A stretch of 32,581 nucleotides of DNA from positions 1 to 32,581 of IMG/VR virus record IMGVR_UViG_3300035698_005200; one strand, given 5' to 3'. Position 1 is the stretch's first letter. The number at the start of each line of letters is the position of its first letter. Below, in pieces: positions 1-32,581 of this stretch. The stretch is from a virus. The translations under genes and the position numbers were made by a program. Below the pieces are notes generated by a model. It was not told where the DNA came from. It made no database searches and saw nothing but the letters and a program-made list of their open reading frames with translations.

Positions 1-127
1 ATAATTATATTCTACTCTCTTATTCGGTCTTGTCAACTAGTTTTATAGTCCAGCCTAAAACGTCTATTATATCTTGCATAACTTCAAAGTTAGGAGACCT
101 ATAACCGTTTTCTATCTGGCAATAATA
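1..127. repeat. 127-bp terminal direct repeat, left copy
   Basis: Bases 1-127 are identical to 32455-32581. A perfect overlap of exactly 127 bp is what a de Bruijn assembler running k=127 leaves when it closes a circle, so I read it as an assembly overlap rather than a physical terminal repeat. The unique genome would be about 32,454 bp, and genes read leftward across the junction. Confidence 0.95.
9..36 (-). promoter_or_regulatory. sigma70-like promoter firing across the circle junction
   Basis: On the minus strand a consensus -35 TTGACA (31-36) is followed, after 16 bases, by TAGAAT (9-14); a TATAAT also overlaps at 4-9. It lies over the 3' end of the XRE gene. On the closed circle it fires toward the winged-helix gene at 32002-32346, so it could give that gene and the iteron region their own transcript. 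A duplicate sits in the terminal repeat at 32463-32490. Confidence 0.5.
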
Positions 128-211
128 AGCCCTGCTTATACCTACACTCTGTGCTATGTCCGCTTGCGTTAATCCTAAGTTCTTACGGATTTGCTTTATC
201 TTACGTCTCAC
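20..211 (-). CDS. XRE/Cro-family helix-turn-helix regulator
   Basis: A 63-residue protein that is almost wholly one HTH_3 domain. It contains the typical LGLTQADIAQSVGISRAYYC run followed by IENGYRSP, in which the recognition helix and the conserved IE-G-R-P turn are clear. I chose the GTG at 211 because an AGGAGG ribosome site sits just upstream; a TTG at 253 is also in frame but lacks one. At this size it resembles phage Cro-type repressors that bind operators as dimers. It is the last gene before the circle junction, downstream of the methyltransferase. Its operators are not identified; the divergent promoter region near 3.75 kb and the promoter overlapping its own 3' end are candidates. 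The family call is firm and the regulatory target is inferred. Confidence 0.85.
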   Translation of the reverse strand: MRRKIKQIRKNLGLTQADIAQSVGISRAYYCQIENGYRSPNFEVMQDIIDVLGWTIKLVDKTE

Positions 212-246
212 GCTTCCTCCTGTTTTCTGTCTCTCCGCAAGGGTTA

Positions 247-1200
247 TTAACAATTAAATAACTGGCTCTGTGCCGTCTCGTTCTCTATACGATCTTTCGC
301 TATATTAAAATACTTTTCGTCTTTCTCTATGCCTATGAATTTACGCCCTGTGTTCTTACAGGCAACTCCTGTAGTTCCACTACCCATCGTTAGGTCAACA
401 ACAAGATCACCGTCATTACTGAATGTTTTAATTAAGTCTTCTAATAGTAAGACAGGCTTTTGAGTTGGATGATGTCCATCGTAGTCTTTTTTGTATTTAA
501 TAATATTAGATTTATATTTTCCACCTTCCCATAAATTAAAAGTGCTTGCGAACTTACTTTTAAACTGGTTGTCTATTTCTTTAAGTTCTTCAAATTCTTT
601 AAAGCCTTGCATTTTGTTAATTTTATAAACTTCAATTAATTTATCATAAATAACTTTAGTACATAAACTAAATTGAGCATATTTTTTAGTACCTCCTAAA
701 AAGTGGTGCGCCCCATTAGTTCCAAGTTCTTTATAAAATCTATTCCTAGAGTAATTTGTAAATGATTTAACATTTAAAGAATAATTTCTTAAAGGGTGCA
801 ACCCTTCAAATTCGTGATTTTTCTTGAAGATAAGTATGTCTTCTATATAGCTAACAGGTGCTTTATTGACTCCTAAACAATTAGCAAAGTGCATTTTATC
901 CCAATACATATTGTAACAATGTGGCAAATTCGGCAATGCTTTAGAAATTAGCTCTGTGGTAAAAGGTTGATTTGCTGTCAATATCATTTTGCCGTTTTTT
1001 CGTAATATTCTATTCGCTATTTTCATTATCCAACCAGTATCAATAACATTATCCCAGCCTGAATCACTTAACTTTTTATATTTTTCTATATCACCTCCAA
1101 GTCCTTTAATTGTACCGTACGGCAAATCTGTCAGAATGAGATCTACACTTCCACTTACTATCTTATCGCTTTCTTCTAAACAATCGCCATTATACAACAT
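247..1200 (-). CDS. Beta-class DNA adenine/cytosine-N4 methyltransferase
   Basis: 317 residues. The catalytic motif IV comes first (TDLPYGT, residues about 24-30, a DPPY variant). A HPTQKP motif lies near residue 245, and the SAM-binding motif I (DLTMGSGTTG) near 269. This order, catalytic motif before SAM motif, defines beta-class amino-methyltransferases. It should transfer a methyl group from S-adenosylmethionine to adenine N6 or cytosine N4 of DNA. No partner restriction gene is seen, so it is probably an orphan phage methylase that protects phage DNA or marks it. The middle region (about 110-230), with many aromatic and basic residues, is the likely target-recognition domain; the recognised sequence cannot be read from it. 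The start overlaps the upstream small gene by 11 bases. Enzyme class is confident, specificity unknown. Confidence 0.93.
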   Translation of the reverse strand: MLYNGDCLEESDKIVSGSVDLILTDLPYGTIKGLGGDIEKYKKLSDSGWDNVIDTGWIMKIANRILRKNGKMILTANQPFTTELISKALPNLPHCYNMYWDKMHFANCLGVNKAPVSYIEDILIFKKNHEFEGLHPLRNYSLNVKSFTNYSRNRFYKELGTNGAHHFLGGTKKYAQFSLCTKVIYDKLIEVYKINKMQGFKEFEELKEIDNQFKSKFASTFNLWEGGKYKSNIIKYKKDYDGHHPTQKPVLLLEDLIKTFSNDGDLVVDLTMGSGTTGVACKNTGRKFIGIEKDEKYFNIAKDRIENETAQSQLFNC

Positions 1201-3503: not shown

Positions 3504-3694
3504 TTTTTCTCCTTAAATATTTTGCTTGTTATCTCTAAACTTGACAGGTGATCGAATATAGCCTTTTCAGCTAGTCCGTATCTAGTTACTTTAGGTTCCC
3601 CCGTCTTACGTCTTCGTTTGTTCTCGCTTCTTATAAAGGAAGCTAGCCTTTTTCTTGTGTCTTCTGTTAGCATAAAAGTCATTGGTTTAAGCAT
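3500..3694 (-). CDS. Small basic DNA-binding-like protein, first gene of leftward operon
   Basis: 64 residues, strongly basic. TFMLTEDTRKRLASFIRSEN resembles the strand-plus-helix opening of ribbon-helix-helix proteins. A loop with KRRRKTGEPKVTRYGLAEKA then leads to a second helix. The pattern fits an Arc/CopG-like regulator with an extended loop, but I cannot confirm the family. It is the promoter-proximal gene of the leftward early operon, with a strong AAGGAGAAAAG leader, and its stop overlaps the ERF start (ATGA). It could autoregulate the divergent promoters just upstream. Confidence 0.65.
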   Translation of the reverse strand: MLKPMTFMLTEDTRKRLASFIRSENKRRRKTGEPKVTRYGLAEKAIFDHLSSLEITSKIFKEKK

Positions 3695-3731
3695 CTTTTC
3701 TCCTTGTTTGAAATGCGGTAATCATATTAAT

Positions 3732-3760
3732 AGTATAGCATTATTGAAATACCATTGCAA
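3732..3760 (-). promoter_or_regulatory. Leftward early promoter (sigma70-like)
   Basis: Minus-strand TTGCAA (3755-3760), a 17-base spacer and TATACT (3732-3737) lie 38 bases upstream of the first leftward gene. It is back to back with the rightward promoter, separated by an AT-rich stretch with dyad symmetry around 3770-3790, a natural place for regulator binding. Confidence 0.75.
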
Positions 3761-3797
3761 GCATTAAAACTATTTTAAATTTAATTTTAAAAAGGTG

Positions 3798-3827
3798 TTG
3801 ACTTCGACTTTCTTGTCGTGGTATAAT
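3798..3827 (+). promoter_or_regulatory. Rightward early promoter with internal inverted repeat
   Basis: TTGACT (3798-3803), an 18-base spacer and a perfect TATAAT (3822-3827) precede the rightward operon. Inside the spacer, CGAC and GTCG form an inverted repeat separated by six bases (about 3805-3818), a possible operator between the -35 and -10 elements. The first start codon is 40 bases downstream with an AAGGAG ribosome site. Confidence 0.8.
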
Positions 3828-3866
3828 TTCTTAGTGGCAGTTAAACGTATCTAAAAAGGAGTCGAG

Positions 3867-4028
3867 ATGAAAGCAAGAAGATGGAGAGTACAGGATCAAG
3901 AAACGGAGAACGAAATTGACACGTTCGATACATATAGCGAAGCGGAAGACGGGCTAGAAGGGGCGATACAAGACGATATAGAATGCGATGTTTTTACTAA
4001 CAATTCATACGAAATAATCGAGGTATAA
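3867..4028 (+). CDS. Acidic hypothetical microprotein, first gene of rightward operon
   Basis: 53 residues with a short basic start (MKARRWRVQDQ) followed by a very acidic body rich in Glu and Asp. An AAGGAG site sits ideally before the ATG, and the gene is the first behind the rightward early promoter. The next gene starts one base after its stop. No family recognised. Its position as first early gene and its acidity are typical of phage host-interaction or anti-host proteins, but that is inference only. Confidence 0.7.
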   Translation: MKARRWRVQDQETENEIDTFDTYSEAEDGLEGAIQDDIECDVFTNNSYEIIEV

Positions 4029-4029
4029 C

Positions 4030-4248
4030 ATGGAACAATGTTACCAAGCGTTAAACGCTAAGTATAAAGGAGACGAAGACGGGGACAAGTACGAACTGGA
4101 GAACGTGGGGTTACAGTGTCCTAACTGTGACGACGGCGACAATTCAGTTCTACCCAACGAAATGGGATCAGTTGACGGTGCGGAAATATGCAAGTGTTGT
4201 GGTAGCAAGTTTCAACCTTACGACTTCAAAGCGGATGTCTGGGTTTAA
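4030..4248 (+). CDS. Two-CxxC zinc-binding-like protein
   Basis: 72 residues with CPNCDDGDNS around residue 30 and CKCCGSKF around 57, a four-cysteine arrangement expected to bind one zinc ion as a ribbon. The sequence between is acidic. It begins one base after the preceding stop and its stop TAA shares its last A with the next start (TAATG), so it is part of a tightly coupled operon. Function unknown; small zinc proteins of this kind are frequent among phage early genes. Confidence 0.75.
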   Translation: MEQCYQALNAKYKGDEDGDKYELENVGLQCPNCDDGDNSVLPNEMGSVDGAEICKCCGSKFQPYDFKADVWV

Positions 4249-4553
4249 TGCGTAGTAATATTATCATGCAACAGAATCGCATGGCTGAGTGGAAACTAAA
4301 AAAGGAAGTAACTGTGAAAGTAACTAAAATATTCGACCCTGCAAGAGCTTACTGCTCAACTTGCAAGAAATGGTTTACGATTGATACAAACATGCACGAC
4401 GACGGTGTCGTATTCTGTCCTTACTGTATAAGCGATAAGAACGACATACAAGCGGGGATTGTTGACGGTAGCGGGTACTGTCACAACTGCTCAGAAAAGG
4501 GTGATCCGTTTAGTATTTGTCGAGAATGCACGCCAAAACTTGAGGTTAAATAA
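4248..4553 (+). CDS. Multi-CxxC zinc-finger-like protein
   Basis: 101 residues containing four cysteine pairs: CSTC, CPYC, CHNC and CREC, with the first two separated by about 19 residues and the last two by about 11. This suggests two zinc-binding modules. The C-terminal pair with GYCHNCSEKGDPFSICREC looks like a treble-clef or RING-like half. The start used overlaps the preceding stop (TAATG); an internal ATG at 4272 is an alternative. No specific family recognised. Clustered with another Cys-pair gene upstream, it may be an adaptor for host proteins or nucleic acid. Confidence 0.75.
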   Translation: MRSNIIMQQNRMAEWKLKKEVTVKVTKIFDPARAYCSTCKKWFTIDTNMHDDGVVFCPYCISDKNDIQAGIVDGSGYCHNCSEKGDPFSICRECTPKLEVK

Positions 4554-4627
4554 TGATGTTCCAAGTATTCGTAATATTATTTCTACTAACAGTAACGCTT
4601 TTACCAAATAGTATATGGGAGTCATAA
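4553..4627 (+). CDS. Predicted membrane micropeptide
   Basis: 24 residues (MMFQVFVILFLLTVTLLPNS...), a single hydrophobic helix with almost no polar part. It starts at the TAATG junction with the upstream gene and ends at another TAATG junction with the next, so it fills the gap exactly. Such micropeptides insert in the inner membrane in other phages. Function is not predictable. The evidence is the hydrophobic run and the coupled boundaries. Confidence 0.5.
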   Translation: MMFQVFVILFLLTVTLLPNSIWES

Positions 4628-4845
4628 TGAGTATCGCTAACCAAATGAGAACGTATTTAGCAGAAGTCAAAGAAGCGGATATGTTGATAGACGAGAAAAC
4701 TCACAAGATGCTAGGTTGCGTGGAGAACGACGACGACGTAATGTTAAATAATCATAAATACATGAAGGATATACTTATCAGTTTTCGTAATGAACGCATG
4801 AACATGTTAAGTAAGCTGTCACATGAGGCGTGGGATGAGCTGTAA
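4627..4845 (+). CDS. Hypothetical helical protein
   Basis: 72 residues from the ATG at 4627, preferred over an in-frame ATG at 4615 because GGGAG (4617-4621) then sits at proper distance and the start overlaps the previous stop (TAATG). The sequence (MSIANQMRTYLAEVKEADML...) is predicted to be mostly alpha-helical and acidic, with several Met residues. No family recognised. It overlaps the next membrane micropeptide by 11 bases. Confidence 0.65.
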   Translation: MSIANQMRTYLAEVKEADMLIDEKTHKMLGCVENDDDVMLNNHKYMKDILISFRNERMNMLSKLSHEAWDEL

Positions 4846-4936
4846 GGGCAGGAATGCCGCCGTAGTGGCTATAATCGTGTTAAGTGTGACGTTGGGCTGT
4901 GTAATCTTTGTGAACGTGTTTAAATGGGGTTTTTAA
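4835..4936 (+). CDS. Single-pass membrane micropeptide
   Basis: 33 residues: a short positively charged start (MSCKGRN) followed by one clear transmembrane helix (AAVVAIIVLSVTLGCVIFV) and a short tail. The charge pattern predicts an N-in orientation. It overlaps the end of the preceding gene by 11 bases. It is the last gene before the gene-free structured block. A role in membrane perturbation or host interaction is possible but unsupported beyond topology. Confidence 0.5.
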   Translation: MSCKGRNAAVVAIIVLSVTLGCVIFVNVFKWGF

Positions 4937-4955
4937 TAGTTAGTAAAAAAGTTCT

Positions 4956-5395
4956 TTGAAAAATCTGGTTTGGGTGTATAATTATCTTGCTTACGATTTG
5001 TTATGTTTCAATCGAATAAACAAAATCCAATGTGTGATTATTTTCTTATATAGTAACTAATCGTAAGCAACACTTGGATTTTTTTATTGTCCGCAAGGTA
5101 AAATCACCCAAGCCATTTTTTCAGTCTCTATAGACAAAAAGACTTCCAAGCGTTATACGTCATGCTGATTCGATTCGTTAGGAGTAGCGATCAACTACAG
5201 AGTGATACACTGGCAAGCGGTATAACACGAACTTGGACGATAGGCAAAACGAAAGTCTTAGTGGGATGTAATCAACAAGGCATAGTCTGACTACGAAAGT
5301 ACAAGGCTCCACATAATCGTAAGCTAAGATATAAGTTTGAAGTAACAAAAACAAGTATGCTAATAAGTATGCCTTATGATATCGTAGTAAATAGG
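4956..5395 (+). ncRNA. Candidate large structured RNA in a gene-free block
   Basis: Between 4937 and 5402 I find no credible coding frame, but there are many long complementary arms. GGTTTGGGTG (4967-4976) pairs with CACCCAAGCC (5105-5114), and the helix extends outward through an A/T run to about 4958 and 5122. TTGCTTACGATT (4987-4998) pairs perfectly with 5059-5070. AAATCCAA (5023-5030) pairs with TTGGATTT (5074-5081), crossing the previous helix as a pseudoknot. A second domain nests three helices: 5139-5145 with 5253-5259, 5145-5150 with 5232-5237, and GTTATAC (5152-5158) with 5220-5226. A third is closed by AAGGCATA (5277-5284) with 5368-5375. GNRA-like loops (GCAA near 5093, GAAA near 5296) appear. 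AATCGTAAGC recurs at 5315-5324 and could compete for the 4987 arm. A TATAAT at 4977-4982 with a weak -35 could give a separate transcript; otherwise it is part of the early operon mRNA. The T-run after 5081 could also act as a terminator. Class unknown. Confidence 0.5.
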
Positions 5396-5402
5396 AGTGG
5401 AG

Positions 5403-5678
5403 ATGAAGAAACCAGAATATAAAGGAACCGAAGAAGATTGCAACGAAGAATGTTCCGAGTGTAAACATAGCGTGTGCGGTCTAAAAGTTATAGGCGAGCA
5501 TGATGCAAAATGGAATTTATATTTAATTCAAGAACTAGCCAAAGCAGAAGCTAGGCGCGTGAAAGACCTTGACGAAATAAGCGAGTGGATGGTCGGAAAC
5601 AACTTTGACAGCGGGGAAATATGTATTATGGAAGTCGACCAGAAGATTGACGAACTAAAAACCAAGACACAAGGCTAA
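5403..5678 (+). CDS. Hypothetical protein with N-terminal cysteine cluster
   Basis: 91 residues from the ATG at 5403, chosen because GGAG sits correctly upstream; a GTG two codons earlier is the alternative. The N-terminal part has CNEECSECKHSVCG, a cluster of four cysteines that could bind metal. The rest is predicted as two charged helices. It is the first gene after the structured RNA block, so its translation could depend on the fold of that leader. No family recognised. Confidence 0.65.
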   Translation: MKKPEYKGTEEDCNEECSECKHSVCGLKVIGEHDAKWNLYLIQELAKAEARRVKDLDEISEWMVGNNFDSGEICIMEVDQKIDELKTKTQG

Positions 5679-5690
5679 TAAAGGATGAAT

Positions 5691-6350
5691 ATGAGTAAAA
5701 CATTTAAGCTAAGAACAGATCTAGCAATAGACGTAATGGGAAAAAAACTATTCCGAATTGAAGCAATAGTTGATATCAAAAAACAAAATGTAAAAAAAGG
5801 TGATTTAGGTGGATATGTAGAAACCGAGAATTGTGTCTATGGTGATGCTTGGGTCTTTGGTAATGCTTGGGTCTCTGGTGATGCTAGGGTCTATGGTGAT
5901 GCTTGGGTCTCTGGTGATGCTTGTGTCTATGGTGATGCTTGTGTCTATGGTGATGCTTGTGTCTTTGGTAATGCTAAGGTCTTTGGTGATGCTAAGGTCT
6001 CTGGTGATGCTAGGGTCTTTGGTAATGCTTGTGTCTCTGGTGATGCTAGGGTCTATGGTGATGCTTGGGTCTCTGATGATGCTTGTGTCTTTGGTAATGC
6101 TAGGGTCTTTGGTAATGCTTGGGTCTCTGATGATGTAATACAGAAACGCCATCAATACGCCACTATAACGAACCAGAAATATAATATTACAATAACCACA
6201 TTGAATATTCAAATAGGGTGCGAGGTACGTGCTAAAAAAGAATGGTTCAAAATGGTAGATAAGCGAATCGCTTTAATGGACGATGGAGCCGTTGAGTGGT
6301 GGAAAGTATGGAAGCCTATATTGCAGGCAATCAGTAAGACCCAAGATTAA
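5691..6350 (+). CDS. Hexapeptide-repeat left-handed beta-helix protein, copy 1
   Basis: 219 residues. A conserved N-terminal cap (FRIEAIVDIKKQNVKKGDLG GYVE) leads into 16 consecutive six-residue repeats of the form (Y/F/S)-G-(D/N)-A-(W/C/R/K)-V. A C-terminal cap then has QIGCEVRAKKEWF and WKPILQAI. The repeat is that of left-handed parallel beta-helices, and the same cap-repeat-cap arrangement occurs in many phage and prophage proteins of unknown function. Each six-residue rung is coded by an 18-bp unit with nearly fixed wobble bases. I prefer the ATG at 5691 (AAGGA at suitable distance) over 5685. It is a near-duplicate of the gene at 6800-7423. Family appearance is confident, biological role unknown. 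Confidence 0.85.
   Translation: MSKTFKLRTDLAIDVMGKKLFRIEAIVDIKKQNVKKGDLGGYVETENCVYGDAWVFGNAWVSGDARVYGDAWVSGDACVYGDACVYGDACVFGNAKVFGDAKVSGDARVFGNACVSGDARVYGDAWVSDDACVFGNARVFGNAWVSDDVIQKRHQYATITNQKYNITITTLNIQIGCEVRAKKEWFKMVDKRIALMDDGAVEWWKVWKPILQAISKTQD
5838..6125 (+). repeat. 18-bp tandem repeat array, 16 units
   Basis: Sixteen head-to-tail 18-bp units of the form TNT-GGT-RAT-GCT-NNN-GTC. Variation is almost limited to three codons: TAT/TTT/TCT, GAT/AAT and TGG/TGT/AGG/AAG. Because the period is a multiple of three and the units avoid stops, several frames on both strands stay open, producing long spurious frames. The array is a clear substrate for unequal recombination with the second array at 6947-7198. 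Confidence 0.95.
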
Positions 6351-6365
6351 CCAAAGGGGAACAAA

Positions 6366-6803
6366 ATGAGTAAACCAAAGATAACAATTACAATGGACGG
6401 CGTGGAATTTGAGATTGGGGAAGTGTGTGAGTTTAGTGACTCTGAAACGTTCAGGAGAAGAACGCACGAAGGAGAATTGAGCGCAATATGCAAAGATAAA
6501 AAAAACACTTTATTTATTGCAGATGGTGGTGAAGGATTTAATTACATTCGCAAACGCCCCAAGCCAGAACCTTTGACGGCTGAAGAAATGTATAGGGCGT
6601 GTGGCAATAAGGGGCTTGAGGTACTGACAGAAGAAAAGGTCTATGGAGTAATAACTGGTGTTAATTTCTCGTCTTCTGCACGTCGAACTGGTTATGTAAC
6701 TGTCAATACAGTTTGGAACAATGTGAGTTCAATCACCCACTTCCGCAAAGCCTACTCTCGAGACCCTTGGCAACCGATCAGCGAACTCGGGGGCGAAGCA
6801 TGA
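6366..6803 (+). CDS. Hypothetical protein between the two beta-helix paralogues
   Basis: 145 residues. It begins with a short beta-rich region (ITITMDGVEFEIGEVCEF), has a basic central stretch (YIRKRPKPEPLTAEEMY) and a second half with several small and aromatic residues. TYPE-like motifs were not found and I recognise no family. The stop overlaps the start of the second beta-helix gene as ATGA. It has AAAGGGG before its start. It lies within the duplicated unit, whose other parts occur twice while this gene occurs once, so the duplication arose around it or it was inserted between copies. Confidence 0.75.
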   Translation: MSKPKITITMDGVEFEIGEVCEFSDSETFRRRTHEGELSAICKDKKNTLFIADGGEGFNYIRKRPKPEPLTAEEMYRACGNKGLEVLTEEKVYGVITGVNFSSSARRTGYVTVNTVWNNVSSITHFRKAYSRDPWQPISELGGEA

Positions 6804-7423
6804 GGAAAACATTTAAACTACGAACAGATCTAGCAATAGACGTAATGGGGAAAAAACTATTCAGAATTGAAGCAATAGTTGATATCAAAAAACAAAATGT
6901 AAAAAAAGGTGATTTAGGTGGATATGTAGAAACCGAGAATTGTGTCTATGGTAATGCTTGGGTCTTTGGTAATGCTTGGGTCTATGGTGATGCTAAGGTC
7001 TATGGTGATGCTTGTGTCTATGGTGATGCTTGGGTCTTTGGTGATGCTTGTGTCTTTGGTGATGCTTGGGTCTTTGGTAATGCTAGGGTCTATGGTGATG
7101 CTTGTGTCTTTGGTGATGCTTGTGTCTCTGGTAATGCTAAGGTCTTTGGTAATGCTAGGGTCTCTGGTGATGCTAGGGTCTCTGGTGATGCTTGGGTCTT
7201 TGATGATGTAATACAGAAACGCCATCAATACGTCACTATAACGAACCAGAAATATAATATTATAATAACCACATTGAATATTCAAATAGGGTGCGAGTTA
7301 CGTACTAAAAAAGAATGGTTCAAAATGTCAGATAAGCAAATCGCTTTAATGGACGATGGAGCCGTTGAGTGGTGGAAAGTATGGAAGCCTATATTGCAGG
7401 CAATCAGTAAGACCCAAGATTAA
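6800..7423 (+). CDS. Hexapeptide-repeat left-handed beta-helix protein, copy 2
   Basis: 207 residues. Both caps are almost identical to copy 1 at DNA and protein level, but there are 14 repeats instead of 16 and the order of residues within the rungs differs. The ATG at 6800 overlaps the preceding stop (ATGA); a longer frame upstream is not supported. The flanking conservation, with synonymous differences few, indicates a recent duplication, while the repeat tract has rearranged. Such proteins are expected to be stable solenoids with one face exposed, here offering variable W/R/C/K and Y/F/S positions. Function unknown; a binding or decoy role is speculation. Confidence 0.85.
   Translation: MRKTFKLRTDLAIDVMGKKLFRIEAIVDIKKQNVKKGDLGGYVETENCVYGNAWVFGNAWVYGDAKVYGDACVYGDAWVFGDACVFGDAWVFGNARVYGDACVFGDACVSGNAKVFGNARVSGDARVSGDAWVFDDVIQKRHQYVTITNQKYNIIITTLNIQIGCELRTKKEWFKMSDKQIALMDDGAVEWWKVWKPILQAISKTQD
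6947..7198 (+). repeat. 18-bp tandem repeat array, 14 units
   Basis: Fourteen units of the same 18-bp module as at 5838-6125, in a different order and number, between almost identical flanks. Homologous recombination between the arrays, or slippage within one, would change rung number without frameshift. Confidence 0.95.
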
Positions 7424-7434
7424 CCAAAGGGGAT

Positions 7435-7638
7435 ATGATGCACTGTTTACACGATAAAACACCAGCATGCGATTGTAACCCTATGTTTCAAGCATGTTCT
7501 CTCTGTGGTTATTCTAAAAGGGAAGTGCAGAGACGAGATAGAGGAGCAACATTAAAGGAACTATGTGCTGATAGATATATATTTAAGACACAAGGTCGAC
7601 CTCGCTCGCATGTCGGTAAATTAAGAAATATTAGATAA
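7435..7638 (+). CDS. Cys/His-rich small protein
   Basis: 67 residues. The N-terminal half has CLHDKTPACDCNPMFQACSL CGYS, with six cysteines and a histidine that could hold a zinc ion. The second half is basic (SKREVQRRDRG and GRPRSHVGKLRNIR), suggesting nucleic-acid contact. The ribosome site is AAAGGGG; ATG codons at 7435 and 7438 are both possible. It follows the second beta-helix gene closely in the same operon. Not assignable to a family. Confidence 0.65.
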   Translation: MMHCLHDKTPACDCNPMFQACSLCGYSKREVQRRDRGATLKELCADRYIFKTQGRPRSHVGKLRNIR

Positions 7639-7651
7639 CCCAAGGAACAAC

Positions 7652-7900
7652 ATGAGCAATAAACCAATAAGCGGAGATGGGTGGGTAAGTGTTGAGGATA
7701 GATTGCCAAGTGGCACAGTTAGTTCGAGTGTAGACGTATTGGCTTATGTACCAGACGAAAAAGACCATGTAGAAAACAGGGTAGAAGTGCTAAATTATTG
7801 GGGCGAAAATGGTTGGTGGGGACTAAACTTCCATTCAAGGAGAGTTAACGGAGTTACCCACTGGCAACCACTACCAGAACCACCAAAGGATAACTTATGA
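7652..7900 (+). CDS. DUF551 domain protein
   Basis: 82 residues carrying the two hallmarks of DUF551: WVSVEDRLPSG near the N-terminus and VTHWQPLPEPP at the C-terminus, with aromatic-rich strands between (NYWGENGWWGLNFHS). DUF551 is a frequent small phage and prophage domain of unknown function. The length is typical of the family, and the stop overlaps the next start as ATGA. CAAGGAACA before the start is a usable ribosome site. Confidence 0.9.
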   Translation: MSNKPISGDGWVSVEDRLPSGTVSSSVDVLAYVPDEKDHVENRVEVLNYWGENGWWGLNFHSRRVNGVTHWQPLPEPPKDNL

Positions 7901-8028
7901 GTAAACCAAAATCCACCCCTGAAAAAGACAAAACTTTTGATCTGATAGTAAAAGAACTTAAAGACGCTGCTGGTTATATAAGTGACGACGACAGCGAAAG
8001 CGATAAGCATTATCGAACTGGCTTTTAG
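7897..8028 (+). CDS. Hypothetical acidic microprotein
   Basis: 43 residues (MSKPKSTPEKDKTFDLIVKE...), with a Lys/Pro-rich start, a short helix and an acidic Asp/Ser stretch (SDDDSESD). The start codon overlaps the DUF551 stop (ATGA) with AAAGGA upstream, so coupled translation is likely. No family recognised. Confidence 0.6.
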   Translation: MSKPKSTPEKDKTFDLIVKELKDAAGYISDDDSESDKHYRTGF

Positions 8029-8039
8029 TCGGGCTTACG

Positions 8040-8186
8040 ATGTGGTCACGCTGGCTTTTTGTAGGCTGCCACTGGTCAATATTTATTTTAATATTAATCA
8101 ACGCATTAGCGATAATATATCAAAGTGAAAAGTTGGACCAAGTAGATAATGAGGAATTTATGCGTGGCTTTATGATGATTGTTTAG
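8040..8186 (+). CDS. Single-pass membrane microprotein
   Basis: 48 residues: MWSRWLFVGCHWSIFILILI followed by NALAIIY gives one transmembrane helix at about residues 5-27. A charged segment (QSEKLDQVDNEEF) and a short hydrophobic end follow. There is little ribosome site upstream, which lowers confidence. It sits just before the holin-like gene with its own promoter, so it could take part in lysis or membrane protection. Function not known. Confidence 0.45.
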   Translation: MWSRWLFVGCHWSIFILILINALAIIYQSEKLDQVDNEEFMRGFMMIV

Positions 8187-8191
8187 GGATG

Positions 8192-8200
8192 TGATATAAT
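8192..8200 (+). promoter_or_regulatory. Extended -10 promoter before holin-like gene
   Basis: TGATATAAT (8192-8200) is a perfect extended -10 (TGnTATAAT). The -35 region about 17 bases upstream is poor, as is usual for extended -10 promoters. Transcription would start near 8207, about 34 bases before the gene at 8241. This would allow separate expression of that gene from the rest of the rightward operon. Confidence 0.55.
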
Positions 8201-8240
8201 AGTAAAGTCGTGAATTGATGCGGCATAAAAAGGAGAATTT

Positions 8241-8573
8241 ATGAAGGAAATGTTAATGGGACTAATTATGTCGCCATCGGTATGGGGTGCGCTTATCTTG
8301 GTAATCGGCTATCTAGCTCAGTTGTTTCTAAAGGGTAACTCTAAGCAGAAAGTTCGGGGCGTTATGGCTATTGCTAAACAGGTGTTTGTTGCTATTGAGA
8401 ATCTTATTCCAGACGATACAGACAACAAGACCGCAAAGAAATGCGATCAAGCGGCTGAAATGTTTATAAAGATTTACGGTGACACGTTCGGCAAAGACCC
8501 AAGCATGGGAATGTTAGAACTTGCTCAAATAGTATGGAAAGATTTAGCGGCAGAACATAAAATACTAAAGTAG
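8241..8573 (+). CDS. Putative holin-like membrane protein
   Basis: 110 residues. One N-terminal transmembrane helix (SVWGALILVIGYLAQLFL, about 13-30) is followed by a basic GNSKQKVRG stretch and a soluble helical C-terminal domain ending in KDLAAEHKILK. The size, single N-terminal helix, positive inner flank and helical tail resemble phage holins of the LL-H type, but the match is architectural only. AAGGAG precedes the start, and it has an apparent dedicated promoter. No endolysin gene lies next to it. Confidence 0.5.
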   Translation: MKEMLMGLIMSPSVWGALILVIGYLAQLFLKGNSKQKVRGVMAIAKQVFVAIENLIPDDTDNKTAKKCDQAAEMFIKIYGDTFGKDPSMGMLELAQIVWKDLAAEHKILK

Positions 8574-8626
8574 CAAAGGTCGCATGGTGGACTTACAAAC
8601 ATGTTAAAGTTGGCAGTTTAAAGTTA

Positions 8627-8677: not shown

Positions 8678-8707
8678 GGGTCGGGGTTAATTCCTCGACT
8701 CTTTTTT
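8678..8707 (+). terminator. Rho-independent terminator of rightward operon
   Basis: GGGTCGGGG (8678-8686), six-base loop, CCTCGACTC (8693-8701), then six T. The nine-pair stem includes two G-U pairs. It ends the rightward operon and faces the leftward terminator a few bases away. Confidence 0.85.
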
Positions 8708-8724
8708 ATTGCCGATAATTAAAA

Positions 8725-8753
8725 GAGCCGACTCCAAGGACGAGAGCCGACTC
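8725..8753 (-). terminator. Rho-independent terminator of leftward late operon
   Basis: On the minus strand GAGTCGGCTC occurs twice (8744-8753 and 8725-8734). The two copies pair along all ten positions with two G-U pairs around a nine-base loop, followed by TTTTAATT. The plus-strand copies would have A-C mismatches, so it works only leftward. It ends the long leftward virion operon. Confidence 0.75.
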
Positions 8754-8756
8754 TAA

Positions 8757-30767: not shown

Positions 30768-30944
30768 TTAGCCATCGCCAGAGCCATCGCCAGAGCCAGA
30801 GCCATCGCCATAGCCAGAGCCATCGCCAGAGCCATAGCTAGAGCCATAGCCATAGCCATAGCCATAACCAGAGCCAGAGCCATAGCCATAGCCATCGCCA
30901 TCGCCAGAGCCATAGCCGTCGCCATAGGTGTTTATTTCTTCCAT
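30768..30944 (-). CDS. Glycine-rich YG/DG/SG dipeptide-repeat microprotein
   Basis: 58 residues. After MEEINT the protein is an almost unbroken run of X-Gly dipeptides with X being Tyr, Ser or Asp (YGDGYGSGDGDGYGYGSGSG and so on), broken once by Ser-Ser-Tyr. It ends with a stop. The start overlaps the stop of the DUF6948-like gene by 13 bases. The codon pattern is uniform (TAT, TCT or GAT followed by GGC), so the DNA is a six-base repeat with a single variable position. Such a chain has no hydrophobic core; it should be disordered or phase-separating, similar in look to silk-like or FG/YG-rich sequences. Function unknown. The opposite strand reads as an Ala/Ile/Arg repeat, which is a shadow. 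Confidence 0.6.
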   Translation of the reverse strand: MEEINTYGDGYGSGDGDGYGYGSGSGYGYGYGYGSSYGSGDGSGYGDGSGSGDGSGDG

Positions 30945-32454: not shown

Positions 32455-32581
32455 ATAATTATATTCTACTCTCTTATTCGGTCTTGTCAACTAGTTTTAT
32501 AGTCCAGCCTAAAACGTCTATTATATCTTGCATAACTTCAAAGTTAGGAGACCTATAACCGTTTTCTATCTGGCAATAATA
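32455..32581. repeat. 127-bp terminal direct repeat, right copy
   Basis: Identical to 1-127. It contains the promoter (TTGACA at 32485-32490, TAGAAT at 32463-32468) and the 3' part of the XRE gene read leftward, which is truncated here and complete at the left end. The 100 bases before it (32347-32454) hold the leader of the winged-helix gene and nothing else that I can see. Confidence 0.95.

What the first reader, a model, noticed from the sequence alone, without database searches (positions are those of the whole stretch)
4956..5395. Undescribed large structured RNA in the rightward early operon
A 466-base gene-free block holds at least seven helices. They include an 11-pair closing stem (4967-4976 with 5105-5114, extendable), a perfect 12-pair stem (4987-4998 with 5059-5070), a crossing stem (5023-5030 with 5074-5081) and three nested helices (5139-5158 with 5220-5259). 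There are also GNRA-like loops and a spare copy of one arm (5315-5324) that could switch partners. In a genome where genes overlap by single bases, keeping this block implies function: phage ncRNA, riboregulator or attenuator.
Basis: partly seen in the sequence, partly recalled or inferred. Interest (0 to 1): 0.82.

Follow-up and report, generated by a model that had tools for sequence, protein, structure and literature searches.

The report
Long switch-like hairpin between phage genes
Between two genes of an uncultured phage lies a 170-base stretch whose RNA would fold into an unusually stable, nearly end-to-end hairpin with a second competing fold; it probably controls or cuts the phage's messenger RNA, but no relatives could be found to prove it, and the rest of the 'large RNA' first reported is ordinary sequence.

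Summary
The block (4937-5402) is free of recognisable genes, and the named helices exist at the stated places. They do not form one large 440-base RNA. All excess folding stability lies in 4956-5125: a 170-nt rod, MFE -51.2 kcal/mol, z -6.2, lower after GC correction than any of 4401 same-length viral windows. The rest, 5126-5402, which holds the 'three nested helices', GNRA-like loops and spare arm, folds no better than shuffled sequence (z 0.00). The 12-pair stem and its crossing stem are real but belong to an alternative state. That state dominates nascent transcripts up to about 5108, then loses to the rod by 2.9 kcal/mol before pseudoknot energy. The outer stem is followed by six U. All three wobble pairs are U·G on the + strand, weakly favouring a rightward RNA. 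Nothing matches Rfam, including group I introns. No DNA, neighbour-protein or covariance-model search found a homologue, so covariation is untested. Best reading: an intercistronic, cis-acting hairpin in the rightward operon (RNase III site, attenuator or terminator). Rivals: a discrete sRNA, a DNA palindrome, or a functionless palindrome. Mechanism and conservation are unproven.

The parts
4956..5125 (+). Core element: 170-nt rod-like hairpin, the only part of the block with excess folding stability
   Evidence: MFE -51.2, z -6.20, 0 of 200 shuffles as low; minus strand -43.2, z -4.99; lowest GC-corrected MFE versus 4401 170-nt viral windows
4967..4976 (+). 5' arm A of closing stem (GGUUUGGGUG); pairs with 5105-5114, or weakly with 5071-5081 in the nascent RNA
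5105..5114 (+). 3' arm A' of closing stem (CACCCAAGCC), followed by A and U6 (5116-5121), terminator-like
4956..4963 (+). Outer extension arm UUGAAAAA, pairs with 5117-5124 UUUUUCAG
4982..4990 (+). 5' arm of second stem of the rod (UUAUCUUGC)
   Evidence: MFE and mean pair probability 0.97
5093..5101 (+). 3' arm of second stem (GCAAGGUAA)
4987..4998 (+). 5' arm of alternative 12-bp stem (TTGCTTACGATT)
   Evidence: perfect complement of 5059-5070; pair probability 1.0 in nascent RNA ending 5070-5104, 0.08 in the finished element
5059..5070 (+). 3' arm of alternative 12-bp stem (AATCGTAAGCAA); lies in the apical region of the rod
5019..5036 (+). 5' arm C of the rod's upper stem (contains AAAUCCAA); crosses the 12-bp stem if both form (H-type pseudoknot)
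5071..5085 (+). 3' arm C' of the upper stem (ACACUUGGAUUUUUU), ending in a U run
5126..5402 (+).
   Evidence: z 0.00; 5122-5330 z +0.30; no Rfam match
5315..5324 (+). Spare copy AATCGTAAGC of the 12-bp stem's 3' arm
   Evidence: exact 11-nt direct repeat with 5058-5068; 10 sites with at most 1 mismatch genome-wide versus 2.4 expected
4835..4936 (+). Upstream neighbour: small membrane-protein-like ORF (33 aa)
   Evidence: translation
5403..5678 (+). Downstream neighbour: 91-aa protein of unknown function with AGGAG-like ribosome site; no relative found

Best explanation
It is an intercistronic, cis-acting RNA hairpin in the phage's rightward operon transcript. As the operon is transcribed, a 12-bp local stem (4987-4998/5059-5070) forms first, possibly with the crossing 8-bp stem as a pseudoknot. 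Once the 3' arm (5105-5125) emerges, the RNA closes into a 170-nt rod whose basal stem is followed by six U. The rod then acts on its own message: it is cut as a double-stranded RNA (RNase III type), or it partly ends transcription at the U tract, so that genes before and after it are expressed at different levels. Shown here: the predicted stability, the two competing folds and the arrangement of arms. Inferred: that it is transcribed, that it acts in cis, and which of processing or attenuation occurs.
For: z -6.20 for 4956-5125 and first in rank against 4401 viral windows. It lies between two same-direction genes of a compact rightward operon downstream of a strong promoter-like site at 3798-3827 (11 of 12, extended -10). 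All three wobble pairs are U·G on the + strand and the + strand folds 8 kcal/mol better than the - strand, as expected for a rightward RNA. The nascent-chain calculation shows an abrupt change of fold between 3' ends 5108 and 5110. The closing stem is followed by AUUUUUU. Precedent: the T7 R1.1 RNase III site is a hairpin with an asymmetric internal loop between genes 1.0 and 1.1 (PMC6121014).
Against: No homologue, so no covariation. No transcription data. The - strand also folds well (z -4.99), so a DNA-level palindrome is not excluded. Three wobble pairs are too few to prove strand. The terminator scan did not report the element (the arms are too far apart for its rule). The host and its RNase III specificity are unknown. 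Folding at 37 C with no pseudoknot model is approximate.
Confidence: 0.4

Rival explanations
1. A discrete small non-coding RNA of about 100-170 nt with its own promoter (TTGAAA at 4956-4961 and TATAAT at 4977-4982, or the 18-nt-spaced variant) ending at one of the U runs, acting in trans.
For: Self-closing rod with 5' and 3' ends paired and a U6 tail resembles many sRNAs; exact TATAAT in the 5' arm; promoter-like site at 4956-4985.
Against: Promoter-like sites are at chance frequency (14 versus 14.1 expected). The TTGAAA-TATAAT spacing is 15 bases, outside the scan rule. If transcription began near 4989 the closing stem could not form. No antisense match to other phage genes longer than 12 nt. 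No Rfam sRNA match above chance.
Confidence: 0.22
2. A DNA-level palindrome: operator, replication origin or recombination site. The inverted repeat TTGCTTACGATTWGTTA and its third partial copy are binding sites; the RNA fold is incidental.
For: Low-GC stretch (GC 0.285 at 4900-5099); inverted 17-mer plus a third partial copy 250 bp away; both strands fold well; the phage encodes an HTH_3 regulator.
Against: Wobble pairs all favour the + strand RNA. Three copies only, in mixed orientation and irregular spacing; not iteron-like. The 17-mer occurs nowhere else in the genome with up to 3 mismatches, including the divergent promoter region 3694-3867 where an operator would be expected.
Confidence: 0.18
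3. A palindromic insertion (MITE-like) or decayed sequence without function in the phage.
For: Concentric inverted repeats with terminal arms of about 20 bp; sits in a gap with no evident gene; no relatives found.
Against: No direct target-site duplication seen by eye at 4956/5125. Single copy. No similar element in 50,697 phage records, and neither the stem patterns in viral contigs nor the model in 664 bacterial genomes gave a homologue. The phage is compact, so junk is not expected to last.
Confidence: 0.13
4. An RNA anti-CRISPR or repeat mimic: the stretch GUUUCAAUC (5005-5013), whose reverse complement contains AUUGAAAC, resembles CRISPR repeat ends.
For: Best, though not significant, Rfam matches are CRISPR-DR5 (20.4 bits) and CRISPR-DR2 (15.8 bits). 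Phage solitary repeat units exist and act as RNA anti-CRISPRs (PMC10651486).
Against: E 0.58 and 2.2, far below gathering scores 40 and 37. The DR5 match spans 53 nt against a 37-nt model. The main fold is not a repeat hairpin.
Confidence: 0.03

Closest known systems
RNase III processing hairpins of phage early mRNA (T7 R1.1; PMC6121014)
   Same: Imperfect hairpin with asymmetric internal loop in a gap between early genes
   Different: R1.1 is 60 nt with a 4/5 loop; this is 170 nt with a large 24/4 internal loop and an alternative fold; cleavage untested
Transcription attenuators with mutually exclusive hairpins (general class, own knowledge)
   Same: Overlapping arms that can pair two ways; basal stem followed by a U run; fold order depends on transcription
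   Different: No leader peptide or known ligand; sits inside an operon; both modelled states keep the closing stem, so a clean terminator/antiterminator pair is not shown
Large ornate RNAs GOLLD, ROOL, OLE (PMC12286853)
   Same: Gene-free structured RNA, in phages for some (own knowledge)
   Different: No Rfam match; the structured part is only 170 nt and rod-like, not multi-domain
Group I introns
   Same: The S-like stretch AUAGUCUGAC (5282-5291) and helices crossing it recall a P3/P7 layout when read by eye
   Different: No RF00028 match at E 10; the P7-like helix would lack the G-C guanosine-site pair; flanking genes are complete
RNA anti-CRISPRs / solitary repeat units (PMC10651486)
   Same: Intergenic phage RNA with a short CRISPR-repeat-end-like motif
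   Different: Repeat similarity at chance level; wrong length

Membership tests
RNase III-processed intercistronic hairpin | Long imperfect double-stranded stem between co-directional genes | tested here: met
   Rod of 62 predicted base pairs between genes ending 4936 and starting 5403
RNase III-processed intercistronic hairpin | Cleavage by RNase III and discrete processed ends | not testable with these tools
   Needs RNA and enzyme assay
Intrinsic terminator or attenuator | G+C-rich stem directly followed by a U run | tested here: inconclusive
   10-bp closing stem then AUUUUUU, but arms 128 nt apart; not reported by the scan
Intrinsic terminator or attenuator | Two mutually exclusive folds of similar energy, one blocking the terminator | tested here: inconclusive
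   Two folds, -51.2 and -48.3, with a nascent-chain change at 5108-5110, but both keep the closing stem
Conserved structured RNA family | Compensatory changes in homologues | not tested
   No homologue found
GOLLD / ROOL / OLE / any Rfam family | Match at or above gathering score | tested here: not met
   No match at gathering; best in the core 20.4 bits, E 0.58; none in 5115-5405
Group I intron | RF00028 core (P3-P8, P7 with guanosine site) | tested here: not met
   0 matches at E 10 in this genome; 8 of 14 control genomes rang
RNA anti-CRISPR (SRU) | Strong match to a CRISPR repeat (published cut-off 41.1 bits) in an intergenic region | tested here: inconclusive
   Best Rfam repeat match 20.4 bits (a covariance-model score, not the same scale) over 53 nt, E 0.58; SRUFinder and its repeat database were not available

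The most novel reading that the evidence does not exclude
A new phage RNA switch: a 170-nt element in a rightward (probably early) operon that folds first into a 12-bp stem with H-type pseudoknot and then refolds into a rod, using the timing of transcription (or a bound protein or ligand) to set expression of downstream genes, with no relative in known RNA families.
Probability: 0.12. Interest if true: 0.65.

Novelty: new member of a known kind. Interest (0 to 1): 0.36.

Why it matters
If it works as proposed, it adds a clearly delimited, testable RNA control element to a phage lineage with no close sequenced relatives in reach, and it narrows a 440-base claim to a 170-base element that bench work can test. 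If it is a DNA palindrome or inert, it matters little.

Tried and rejected
Large single RNA over 4956-5395: rejected, since 5126-5402 has z 0.00 and 5122-5330 z +0.30. Group I intron: looked for by eye (R- and S-like strings at 5192-5199 and 5282-5291) and with RF00028; no match at E 10. Other Rfam families: none significant. Coding sequence: only a 42-aa ORF without PHROG hit on the + strand; the antisense 96-aa ORF overlaps the downstream gene and was taken as spurious without a profile search. tRNA/tmRNA: none. Homologues by DNA in phages and plasmids: none (the plasmid hit is 37 bases, E 0.07). Stem patterns in viral contigs: none. Stem pattern in genome contigs: 28 hits, chance-level by a rough count; only L166 scored (20.4 bits), and its two arms were required by the pattern, so it was judged chance. 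Model R1 on phages sharing the exonuclease or portal gene: none convincing (one 11-bit match at E 0.9). Model R1 in 369 + 295 bacterial genomes: one 63-nt simple hairpin, judged a chance match. Closer kin via exonuclease, portal, terminase, ERF and operon proteins: best about 55% for the exonuclease, 30-43% for structural proteins, none for the genes beside the element. A genome-wide folding scan at finer step timed out and was replaced by a coarser one.

Full report
SETTING. The window is a complete-looking phage record of 32,581 bases with an exact 127-base direct repeat at its ends. IMG/VR holds it as a virus record. Structural genes (terminase, head-tail connector, tail proteins) and a recombination set (YqaJ exonuclease, ERF-like annealing protein, NinB/Orf-like mediator, DNA methylase) lie on the minus strand. 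A rightward operon of small genes runs from 3867 to 8573, behind an 11-of-12 promoter-like site with extended -10 at 3798-3827. The finding lies inside this operon, between a small membrane-protein-like ORF ending at 4936 and a 91-aa gene starting at 5403. Calling the operon 'early' is an inference from position and gene type.

WHAT IS IN THE SEQUENCE. No protein-coding sequence is evident: one 42-aa + strand ORF without a PHROG match, and an antisense 96-aa ORF that runs into the downstream gene and was not profiled.

IS IT MORE THAN CHANCE? The whole block gives z -2.73. Splitting it is decisive. 4960-5121 gives z -5.92 and 4956-5125 gives MFE -51.2, z -6.20, with none of 200 shuffles as low. 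The rest gives z +0.30 (5122-5330) and 0.00 (5126-5402). The core's boundaries were chosen after seeing the folds, but the margin is large. As a background from real genomes, 4401 windows of 170 nt and GC 0.24-0.36 from 143 phage loci were folded; none had a lower GC-corrected energy than this element. In the coarser scan of this genome the window at 4976 ranked fifth of 240 (z -4.5); the four above it lie at 4001, 5951, 7001 and 8576, which are one gene start, two coding-repeat regions and one terminator region. So the core is exceptional and the 3' part of the claim is not.

ANATOMY. The minimum-energy fold is a rod: outer stem 4956-4963/5117-5124, closing stem 4966-4976/5105-5115, second stem 4982-4990/5093-5101, a lopsided internal loop (24 nt on the 5' side, 4 on the 3' side), then the upper stem from 5015 with arms around 5015-5036 and 5071-5088, and an apical region. 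Of 62 pairs, three are wobble and all are U·G on the + strand. On the minus strand these would be A·C mismatches, and that strand folds 8 kcal/mol less well. This leans towards a rightward RNA, but three pairs are few.

TWO STATES. In transcripts ending between 5070 and 5104 it is 1.0, and between 5108 and 5110 the ensemble flips to the rod. Forcing the 12-bp stem in the full element costs only 2.9 kcal/mol (-48.3 against -51.2), and the crossing 8-bp stem, not scored by this program, could pay that back. Either state may persist in a growing transcript. Both keep the closing stem, which is followed by AUUUUUU. A classical terminator/antiterminator pair is therefore not demonstrated, but the order of folding is the kind of thing attenuators use.

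WHAT IT IS NOT. No Rfam family reaches its threshold in the window. Permissive scans of the core give only chance-level hits, the best a CRISPR repeat model at E 0.58, and none in 5115-5405. Group I intron RF00028 gives nothing at E 10 while control genomes ring. It is not a tRNA or tmRNA.

RELATIVES. No DNA match in 50,697 phage records and only a 37-base chance match in plasmids. Patterns built on the stems find nothing in viral contigs. In bacterial genomes the 28 pattern hits are about the number expected by a rough count; the one that scores with the model has only the arms that the pattern required. A covariance model from the single sequence finds nothing convincing in phages that share the exonuclease or portal gene. 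In 664 bacterial genomes of two classes it finds only a simple 63-nt hairpin, judged chance. A model built from one sequence is weak, so these blanks have limited force. The phage has no close kin in reach: its nearest exonuclease is 55% identical, portals about 30%, terminase 43%, and the genes beside the element have no detectable relatives. The tools state that records near the window's own genome may be left out, so this is absence within reach, not proof of uniqueness. Covariation is therefore untested.

MECHANISM. The best-supported reading is an intercistronic RNA hairpin acting in cis on the operon message, by RNase III-type cutting or by partial termination or attenuation. Phage precedent exists for RNase III hairpins between early genes (T7 R1.1, PMC6121014). 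The predicted stability, anatomy and the two folds are shown; transcription, cis action and the choice between cutting and termination are inferred. A discrete sRNA is the main RNA rival; its promoter evidence is no better than chance, and a start near 4989 would leave out the closing stem. A DNA palindrome remains possible because both strands fold well and TTGCTTACGATTWGTTA is an inverted pair with a third partial copy. An RNA anti-CRISPR is a weak lead only; the published search for such repeats uses a cut-off of 41.1 bits to known repeats (PMC10651486), and the match here is at chance level.

VERDICT. Observation partly confirmed; interpretation partly supported. A real, unusually stable 170-nt element with a plausible folding switch, in a phage without close kin in reach. 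It is most likely a new example of a known kind of phage mRNA control hairpin, with function unproven.

Noticed in passing
window 5685-6350 and 6800-7423: Two 82%-identical proteins flank a 145-aa gene; the first matches the YdcK beta-solenoid repeat. Their middle parts are 18-bp tandem repeats with about 17 and 15 copies, so repeat number differs between the copies.
   Followed up: partly
window 1-127 and 32455-32581: Exact 127-base direct repeat at the record ends, so the genome is likely complete and circular as assembled.
   Followed up: yes
window 8678-8754: Convergent, G+C-rich terminator-like hairpins where the rightward operon meets the leftward genes; the region also folds strongly (z -4.96 at 8576).
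   Followed up: no
window 4001-4150: Lowest folding z (-5.0) of the coarse scan falls at the start of the small zinc-ribbon-like gene 4030-4248.
   Followed up: no
window, 10 sites: GCTTACGATT with at most one mismatch occurs 10 times versus 2.4 expected, with 3 exact copies all inside this block.
   Followed up: partly
window 30769-30927: A 6-bp tandem repeat (TAGCCA, 26 copies).
   Followed up: no
window 20-253: HTH_3 (Cro/CI-like) regulator beside a DNA methylase gene, a possible repressor.
   Followed up: no
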